The notes under the pieces were generated by a model. That model was not told the origin of the DNA. It searched no databases and saw only the letters and a list, made by a program, of their open reading frames with translations. Made by a program: the position numbers and the translations under genes. From NCBI GenBank assembly GCA_903848935.1, contig CAINHO010000050.1:1-64000 (forward strand): DNA of 64,000 nt. The letters run 5' to 3'. Below are positions 50,426 to 51,855 of the stretch, piece by piece. Position 1 is the stretch's first letter; every line of letters starts with the position of its first letter. The stretch is from an uncultured Pseudomonadota bacterium. GTDB taxonomy: Bacteria > Pseudomonadota > Gammaproteobacteria > Methylococcales > Methylomonadaceae.

Positions 50426-50457
50426 ATGACACAACCTGTCGTCACGGTATGTTATTG
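50426..50457. repeat. Copy 1 of ~32-bp repeat upstream of WYL remnant (putative operator)
   Basis: atgacacaacctgtcgtcacggtatgttattg. Confidence 0.7.
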
Positions 50458-50489: not shown

Positions 50490-51031
50490 ATGACTAAAAC
50501 CACTGAACACGATAAAACCGCCGTTCGCTTAACTGAAATTCTGACCATCTTGCAACATCACATCGTTCAATTTGAATACAAAAACAAAACTTACCGCGCT
50601 GAATCTTACAAACTCGTGAACCACAAAGCGATTTGGTATCTCGCCGCAAAAGTTGAAAACATAAAGCGTTTTGTTTTACCCAAATGAAAGGCATTGTGAT
50701 TGAAAGTGAAATGTTTTCTCCCGATGCGACAACGCATCAAATTATCGAGCAAGAAGACAGCATTTGGTTTGCCGAAAATAAACGTGAAGTGGTTTTGAAA
50801 GTCGATAGTTCGGTCGCACAGTATTTCAAACGCCGCGATTTATTACCGAATCAACAAATTGATAAAACTCTTGAAGATGGCAGTTTGATTGTGTCATCGC
50901 GGATTGCTCACGACCACCAAATTTTGCCGCTGATTCGATATTGGTTGCCAAATGTGCAAGTAATTAGTCCGAATGAATTGCGTCACACGTTGTTTCAAGG
51001 TTTACGGGATTATTTAAATGATGACGAATAA
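50490..51031 (+). pseudogene. WYL-domain transcriptional regulator, split in two overlapping ORFs (50490-50687, 50684-51031) and lacking most of its N-terminal wHTH
   Basis: TEHDKTAVRLTEILTIL then directly QHHIVQFEYKNKTYRAESYKLVNHKAIWYLAAKVENIKRFVLPK*; ATGA overlap to MKGIVIESEMFSPDA...LPLIRYWLPNVQVISPNELRHTL. Confidence 0.6.
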
Positions 51032-51054: not shown

Positions 51055-51086
51055 ATGACACAACCTGTCGTCGGTGTGTGTTATTG
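51055..51086. repeat. Copy 2 of ~32-bp repeat, upstream of ZorA-like remnant
   Basis: atgacacaacctgtcgtcggtgtgtgttattg; 28/32 positions match copy 1 without gaps. Confidence 0.7.
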
Positions 51087-51132
51087 TCACTGTTAAAAAT
51101 TAACGCTCTAAAATTCAAAAAAGGAGAATTAC

Positions 51133-51658
51133 ATGGAATATGAACAAATTATTGAACAAATTTTTGCCAGCACTACCAATCAAATTGCCGCAACAGTTAT
51201 TGCATTTCTAACGTTACTTGCATTGCTTGGCATATTTACACCTACAAATGTAAAAATTAAAAATTTTGCTAAACAGTCACCTGCAATTTTGGCAACTGTT
51301 GGTATCTTTTTTAGTTTTTGGGGGATTTCTATTGGGTTGATTGCCTTAGATTTAACGGATATACAAGGCAGTATTCCAAAATTATTAGACGGTTTGAAAA
51401 TCAAATTTATCGCCAGTTTAAATGGAGTTATCTCAAAATCGAACACGAGCCACATTAGAACATTGTTTAATGTTACCAAATGTTTCCTCAGAACGGTTTT
51501 GGATTCGTCAGATTCTAACCGCAAATGGTTTATCTTCAAGCAAGCCAATACTGGTAAATGGGGTTGAAGATACAAAACTTTCGCGCCGTGTTGAATTCAG
51601 GATTAAAACAAATTCGGAAAATCAAATTATGAAAATTTTGAAACGGGAAACCACATGA
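51133..51658 (+). pseudogene. Deletion remnant: N-terminus of a ZorA-like MotA/ExbB protein joined out-of-frame to the C-terminus of a ZorB-like OmpA-domain protein
   Basis: Frame 1: KQSPAILATVGIFFSFWGISIGLIALDLTDIQGSIPKLLDGLKIKFIASLNG; frame +1 from 51422: MELSQNRTRATLEHCLMLP...LTANGLSSSKPILVNGVEDTKLSRRVEFRIKTNSE. Confidence 0.62.
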
Positions 51659-51855
51659 AATTCACACTTTTCACCAGCTTAATTATTTTCGCGTTATCGG
51701 CTCAAGCGGCCGAAAAACGCATTTATTCAACTGATGCAATTGGTAATCGCCAGTACGATAAACCGTCTTACATGATTTCGGATAATGGACGAATTTACGA
51801 AACGGATTCAATTGGCAATCGCCAATATGACAAACGGTCATTTGAAATGAAGTGA
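51655..51855 (+). CDS. Small exported repeat protein
   Basis: Signal peptide; two copies of RIY(S/E)TD(A/S)IGNRQYDK; start overlaps stop of preceding ORF. Confidence 0.6.
   Translation: MKFTLFTSLIIFALSAQAAEKRIYSTDAIGNRQYDKPSYMISDNGRIYETDSIGNRQYDKRSFEMK

What the first reader, a model, noticed from the sequence alone, without database searches (positions are those of the whole stretch)
51133..51658. Internal-deletion fossil of a ZorA/ZorB-like (MotA/ExbB + OmpA) operon
Seen directly: one frame encodes a proton-channel N-terminus (SPAILATVGIFFSFWGISIGLIALDL..SIPKLLDGLKIKFIASLNG), and within about 10 nt another frame (+1) begins an OmpA-like C-terminus (ELSQNRTRATLEHCLML...GVEDTKLSRRVEFRIKTN). 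The C-terminal half of the channel and the N-terminal half of the OmpA partner are absent. Zorya-type anti-phage systems pair a MotA-like ZorA with an OmpA-domain ZorB; that this specific pair was a defence system is inference.
Basis: partly seen in the sequence, partly recalled or inferred. Interest (0 to 1): 0.68.

Follow-up and report, generated by a model that had tools for sequence, protein, structure and literature searches.

The report
Broken Zorya phage-defence operon with regulator
A methanotroph has lost most of a known anti-phage system (Zorya type II) and the DNA-binding half of its neighbouring regulator, leaving gene stubs behind two intact copies of an operator-like DNA site that, in related bacteria, fronts many other defence genes.

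Summary
The two fragments are the first ~96 residues of a type II ZorA and the last ~77 of a ZorB2, fused at 51420/51422 by loss of 1.9-2.8 kb (judged from zorA-zorB-zorE loci in the same genus and family). zorE is gone too, apparently through an ATGAAA shared by the zorE start and the next gene's start. No other copy was found in the 90.8%-complete genome. It is a fossil of a known system.

The gene just upstream (50490-51031) is a second fossil: a WYL/WCX regulator of BrxR/CapW type whose wHTH region is deleted and which has a 4-nt frameshift. An identical 18-bp site stands before both fossils. The same palindrome precedes 26 of 27 WYL genes of this type, whose downstream neighbours include CRISPR I-F and PDC-M09 genes. 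It also occurs unlinked to any WYL gene, including before a type II restriction-modification pair in this genome. Across 201 family genomes, site and regulator co-occur (Fisher p = 7e-10).

Best reading: a recently decayed Zorya II operon that was one cargo of a WYL-linked defence promoter. Known kind of system, decayed; the dispersed operator set is the more interesting part and is experimentally untested.

The parts
50426..50443 (+). Operator-like site 1, ATGACACAACCTGTCGTC, ahead of the WYL gene, followed by a -10-like TGTTAT
   Evidence: exact match; conserved ahead of WYL genes
50490..51031 (+). WYL/WCX transcriptional regulator pseudogene: ~345-bp in-frame deletion removing the wHTH region (junction at about 50543/50544) and a 4-nt loss causing a frameshift at ~50662/50663
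   Evidence: comparison with the full genes of G137, G152, G109, G153
51055..51072 (+). Operator-like site 2, identical 18 bp, in the promoter region of the zorA remnant, with -10-like TGTTAT at about 51079-51084
51122..51127 (+). Ribosome-binding-site-like AGGAGA ahead of the zorA remnant
   Evidence: sequence read directly
51133..51420 (+). zorA remnant, residues 1-96 (MEYEQ...KFIASL); the frame then runs out of register to a stop ending at 51567
51420..51422 (.). Deletion junction: 1.9-2.8 kb lost (rest of zorA plus the first two thirds of zorB); imperfect short direct repeat TTTAA..TGG / TTTAAATATGG
51422..51658 (+). zorB remnant, C-terminal ~77 residues (MELSQNRTRATLE...), the end of the peptidoglycan-binding domain; no transmembrane helix
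51655..51660 (+). Inferred zorE deletion point: ATGAAA shared by zorE starts in relatives and by the start of the next gene
51655..51855 (+). Small secreted-type 'tail' gene (66 aa; ~89 aa in relatives, one repeat unit shorter here) found at the end of other operons led by the same site

Best explanation
The locus is a recently inactivated type II Zorya anti-phage operon that used to be: WYL regulator - operator/promoter - zorA - zorB - zorE - small tail gene. In the working form (known for Zorya II, not tested here) a ZorA5B2 ion-driven membrane motor with a long cytoplasmic ZorA tail recruits or activates the ZorE nickase on infection. A BrxR/CapW-type WYL dimer presumably controlled it from the palindrome AYGACA-N5-TGTCRT placed at its own promoter and at the cargo promoter. 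Small internal deletions then removed the regulator's DNA-binding region, the middle of zorAB, and zorE, leaving out-of-frame stubs. Shown by sequence: the zorAB and regulator deletions, homology, operator conservation and its association with the regulator. Inferred: that the regulator binds the site, the direction of control, the loss of zorE from this operon, and the order of losses.
For: ZorA2/ZorB2 profile matches and PDB 8VVI matches; intact zorABE in G063, G081, G048 and G132 with ZorE confirmed in G063; breakpoint alignment; no second copy in the genome. Fragments still show strong past constraint (pN 0.05-0.22 against pS 0.55-0.83) and no internal stop, so the loss is recent. WYL gene lesions. 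Operator: identical 18-mer before both genes; AYGACAYNACCTGTCRTY within 300 bp upstream of 26 of 27 WYL genes, about 0 expected from shuffles; site and WYL gene co-occur in 201 family genomes (13 both, 5 site only, 13 WYL only, 170 neither; p = 7e-10). Genes behind WYL genes in relatives include Cas1f/Cas3f/Cas8f and PDC-M09A/B; TerD is cargo in L068.
Against: No intact Zorya locus in relatives carries the WYL gene, the site or the tail gene (none in L054-L062), so the ancestral arrangement WYL-zorABE-tail is reconstructed from this one locus. zorE could have been absent before this arrangement formed. The pattern used was derived partly from the same promoters. The genome is one assembly at 90.8% completeness, and no reads were available.
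Confidence: 0.88

Rival explanations
1. Assembly artefact: the organism has an intact zorABE and the assembler collapsed or skipped it.
For: Draft genome in 51 contigs, no reads available to check; intact relatives exist.
Against: Junction unique in the genome, inside a 95.9-kb contig, with only a few bases of similarity between the two ends, far below an assembler's word length; the neighbouring WYL gene carries two further lesions; no zorE or missing ZorB part elsewhere.
Confidence: 0.04
2. The stubs are a shortened but functional system: the 144-residue ZorA-derived protein and/or the 78-residue ZorB-derived protein still act, for example as an inhibitor or a membrane peptide.
For: Both operator-like sites, the RBS and start codon are intact; the stub frames have no internal stop.
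Against: ZorA lacks the tail and the later membrane helices, ZorB lacks its membrane helix, and ZorE is absent; the ZorA tail, ion flow, ZorB peptidoglycan binding and ZorE are important in tested Zorya II (PMC11890865). The ZorA-derived frame ends in 48 out-of-frame residues.
Confidence: 0.04
3. What is being kept is the promoter plus the small tail gene; the zorA/zorB stubs are only its leader.
For: The tail gene is in frame with a signal-peptide-like start and ends at least ten other site-led operons; zorE seems to have been removed exactly up to its start codon.
Against: The tail gene has itself lost a repeat unit, its function is unknown, and many genomes of the family lack it (20 of 161 have it). 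This is compatible with the best explanation rather than exclusive of it.
Confidence: 0.25
4. Zorya was dropped by chance next to an unrelated WYL locus; the WYL gene never controlled it.
For: Intact Zorya loci in relatives have neither WYL gene nor site.
Against: The site stands about 60 bp before the zorA start, as it does before the other cargo genes, with the same downstream TTAT element, and the WYL gene is directly upstream on the same strand.
Confidence: 0.1

Closest known systems
Zorya type II (ZorA-ZorB-ZorE)
   Same: Both remnants are ZorA2/ZorB2 by profile and match chains of PDB 8VVI; intact relatives in the genus carry ZorE directly after ZorB.
   Different: Here only 96 residues of ZorA and ~77 of ZorB remain, in different frames, and ZorE is missing; it cannot form the motor or the nuclease.
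BrxR / CapW family of WYL regulators (PMC9122601, PMC9122588)
   Same: HTH-WYL-WCX layout in the intact relatives, inverted-repeat site ahead of the regulator gene and often a second ahead of the next operon, 5-bp spacer as in the R-BOX, defence genes downstream.
   Different: Half-sites are about 6 bp here against 11 bp in the E. fergusonii R-BOX; the same site also occurs at unlinked operons; no sequence match to any solved structure at E 0.01; in the window the wHTH region is deleted.
MotAB / ExbBD / TolQR ion-driven motors
   Same: ZorA and ZorB share the general fold.
   Different: The four PF01618 proteins of this genome lie elsewhere; the remnant scores with ZorA2, not with PF01618.

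Membership tests
Zorya type II | ZorA2 and ZorB2 sequence homology | tested here: met
   E 6.6e-20 and 3.3e-23
Zorya type II | Complete ZorA with membrane core and long cytoplasmic tail | tested here: not met
   only residues 1-96 remain
Zorya type II | Complete ZorB with N-terminal membrane helix and peptidoglycan-binding domain | tested here: not met
   only profile positions 160-237 of 238
Zorya type II | ZorE HNH nuclease in the operon | tested here: not met
   absent from window and genome; present in G063, G081, G119, G048, G132 loci
Zorya type II | Anti-phage activity | not testable with these tools
   needs phage challenge; not expected for the remnant
BrxR/CapW WYL regulators | wHTH + WYL + WCX domains in one protein (intact relatives) | tested here: met
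   relative L065: WCX 1.5e-11, WYL 1.6e-7, HTH_11 2.4e-4, the last below Pfam's cut-off
BrxR/CapW WYL regulators | Same domains in the window copy | tested here: not met
   wHTH region deleted and frame shifted
BrxR/CapW WYL regulators | Palindromic site in the promoter of the regulator and of the neighbouring operon | tested here: met
BrxR/CapW WYL regulators | Binding and repression, relieved on infection | not testable with these tools
   needs EMSA and reporter assays

The most novel reading that the evidence does not exclude
In this family of methanotrophs a single BrxR-like WYL regulator controls a dispersed set of defence operons in trans through one shared operator, and the window organism is a natural regulator-null: its only WYL copy found lacks the DNA-binding region while four near-identical operators remain (two here, one before a type II restriction-modification pair on another contig, one before a ~510-residue protein of unknown family).
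Probability: 0.5. Interest if true: 0.6.

Novelty: new member of a known kind. Interest (0 to 1): 0.4.

Why it matters
It documents how a costly defence operon dies: a few small internal deletions, with regulator and effector lost and promoters left intact. More usefully, it points to a shared operator that marks defence operons across a family of methanotrophs, known and unknown ones alike. Scanning for that 18-bp site is a simple way to nominate new defence genes, and genomes with a broken regulator offer a natural test of whether it represses or activates them.

Tried and rejected
Pfam alone: neither fragment passes, so Pfam is uninformative for fragments this short. Homology-driven deletion at zorAB: only an imperfect short repeat (TTTAA..TGG / TTTAAATATGG) is shared, and the observed junction is not exactly predicted by either part of it. 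Junction 30-mer in viral contigs: none. A solved structure for the WYL regulator by sequence: none at E 0.01. Families for the tail gene and for several cargo proteins: none. The G128:C77 site lies inside a coding gene without the -10 element and was treated as a chance match.

Full report
What was claimed and what is there. Both are real. The first ORF matches PADLOC ZorA2 profiles from their N-terminus (best E 6.6e-20) and the second matches ZorB2 over its last 78 positions (E 3.3e-23). Each also matches one chain of PDB entry 8VVI (E 1.5e-9 and 7.3e-10); the depositors call these chains MotA/TolQ/ExbB-domain and MotB-like proteins. Type II scores are better than type I for both. Pfam finds neither. 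The genome's four MotA/ExbB proteins over the Pfam cut-off are elsewhere.

Where the break is. Relatives of the ZorA fragment were found in 10 of 151 family genomes, counting the window's own. Same-genus G063 and G081 and same-family G048 and G132 have intact zorA-zorB followed directly by a third gene; the G063 one is ZorE2 (E 2.6e-64). In G119 zorA itself is split by a frameshift. Aligning the window with these puts the junction at 51420/51422: zorA up to KFIASL, then zorB from (M)ELSQNRTR. In relatives the two points are 1901, 1901, 2108, 2459 and 2830 bp apart. The ends share only a short imperfect repeat. zorB ends normally except for a 1-nt change of register near its stop, and its ATG-overlapping end leads into ATGAAATTC of the next gene, where relatives have ATGAAACTC or similar of zorE; so zorE was most likely removed between these two start codons (inference). 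No ZorE and no missing part of ZorB was found elsewhere in the genome, no second copy of the remnant DNA, and none of the genome's four PF01618 matches lies at this place. The genome is 90.8% complete.

Age. Between the remnants and the relatives' genes, nonsynonymous differences are few (pN 0.05-0.22) and synonymous ones many (pS 0.55-0.83), as among the relatives themselves. The frames carry no internal stop. Most of the divergence therefore predates the loss; the loss is recent. Whether the stubs are under selection now cannot be told from one genome.

A second fossil upstream. The two short ORFs at 50490-50687 and 50684-51031 are one broken gene. Full-length relatives (about 296-300 aa in G137, G152, G109, G153) have HTH, WYL and WCX domains (for the G137 copy). 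The window copy keeps residues 1-18, lacks about 115 residues including the HTH region, and has a 4-nt deletion that shifts the frame at about 50662. The gene is also damaged in G128 (internal deletion, about residues 188-248) and G119 (only the first ~65 residues), and looks frameshifted in G081. So four of the eight genus genomes that have it carry a copy that is or looks damaged.

The shared site. ATGACACAACCTGTCGTC occurs exactly at 50426 and 51055, ahead of each fossil. Aligned promoters show ATGACAyAACCTGTCgTC followed at fixed distance by gtgt.TTAT. It reads as a palindrome, AYGACA-N5-TGTCRT. Of 27 WYL genes of this type from several genera (48-100% identical), 26 have AYGACAYNACCTGTCRTY with at most two mismatches within 300 bp upstream, against about 0 expected from dinucleotide shuffles; the pattern was derived partly from these sequences, so the count is descriptive. 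In L142 both copies carry the same variant, GCGACA...GTCGTT. Across 201 family genomes 13 have both site (one mismatch allowed) and WYL gene, 5 site only, 13 WYL only, 170 neither (Fisher p = 7e-10; outside the genus p = 1e-4); the test treats genomes as independent although they are related. This is what an operator of that regulator would look like. It matches the published layout of BrxR, which binds inverted repeats with a 5-bp spacer near its own promoter, has a second putative site upstream of brxA, and represses (PMC9122601), and of CapW, which binds palindromes at defence promoters and represses (PMC9122588).

What the site leads in relatives. Behind WYL genes: Cas1f-Cas3f-Cas8f (L128), PDC-M09A/B (L129), Leo-like GTPase proteins (L131), a partial BnzA match (L137). 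In L128 a site precedes the WYL gene but none with up to three mismatches was seen between it and cas1. Without an adjacent WYL gene: a type II restriction enzyme and methyltransferase in the window's own genome (L073), and proteins with no family match, including a ~510-residue protein in the window's genome on a third contig (L094) whose relatives recur in L085, L143-L146 and L150. TerD is cargo in L068. This strengthens the view that the Zorya here was a defence cargo of this promoter type. But none of the Zorya loci L054-L062 has the site, the WYL gene or the tail gene, so this combination is seen only here.

The tail gene. The small gene 51655-51855 has relatives in 20 of 161 family genomes, counting its own. 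In 11 of 19 loci examined, the window included, a site lies upstream on the same strand within 4 kb, and L157 has the gene behind a WYL gene. It has no family match above the cut-offs. Its role is unknown.

How it would have worked. In tested Zorya II systems a ZorA5B2 motor, its ZorA tail, peptidoglycan binding by ZorB and the ZorE nickase matter for defence (PMC11890865). The remnant lacks the tail, most of ZorB and ZorE and cannot work that way. The likely former system is WYL regulator - operator - zorABE - tail gene. Control by the WYL protein, and its sign, are inferred.

Verdict. The object itself is ordinary decay of a known system. The added value is the regulator fossil and the shared operator, which suggest a dispersed WYL-linked defence regulon in these methanotrophs; that remains to be tested at the bench.

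Noticed in passing
window 51655-51855; L063, L065, L066, L068, L069, L070, L071, L073, L093, L103, L157: A small secreted-type repeat protein (RIYSTDSIGNRQYDKPSYTI...) recurs at the end of operons that start with the same 18-bp site or the WYL gene; no family match.
   Followed up: partly
L094:5094-6623 (own genome, contig C3); L085, L143-L146, L150: A ~510-residue protein (VVIDNETGFILDE...) with no Pfam, NCBIfam or PADLOC match is a frequent gene behind the site or the WYL regulator: a candidate unknown defence gene.
   Followed up: partly
L055 (G119), L073 (own genome), L088 (G063): The position next to petA-petB-petC holds TerD-like genes plus Zorya in G119, a site-led type II restriction-modification pair in the window's genome, and a site followed by short remnants in G063: a likely insertion hotspot.
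   Followed up: partly
L068:511-1225, L084:1675-1860, L067:4716-5571: The WYL regulator looks independently damaged in G128, G119 and G081, as well as in the window.
   Followed up: partly
L055:9700-12394: The zorA of G119 is split by a frameshift, so a second Zorya in this genus may also be inactive.
   Followed up: no
L065:10990-12357, L103:1443-2695, L130:9847-11104, L131:9225-10319: A recurring pair of small glycine-rich, probably membrane-associated proteins behind the site; one has a weak PADLOC LeoBC match (1.2e-7).
   Followed up: no
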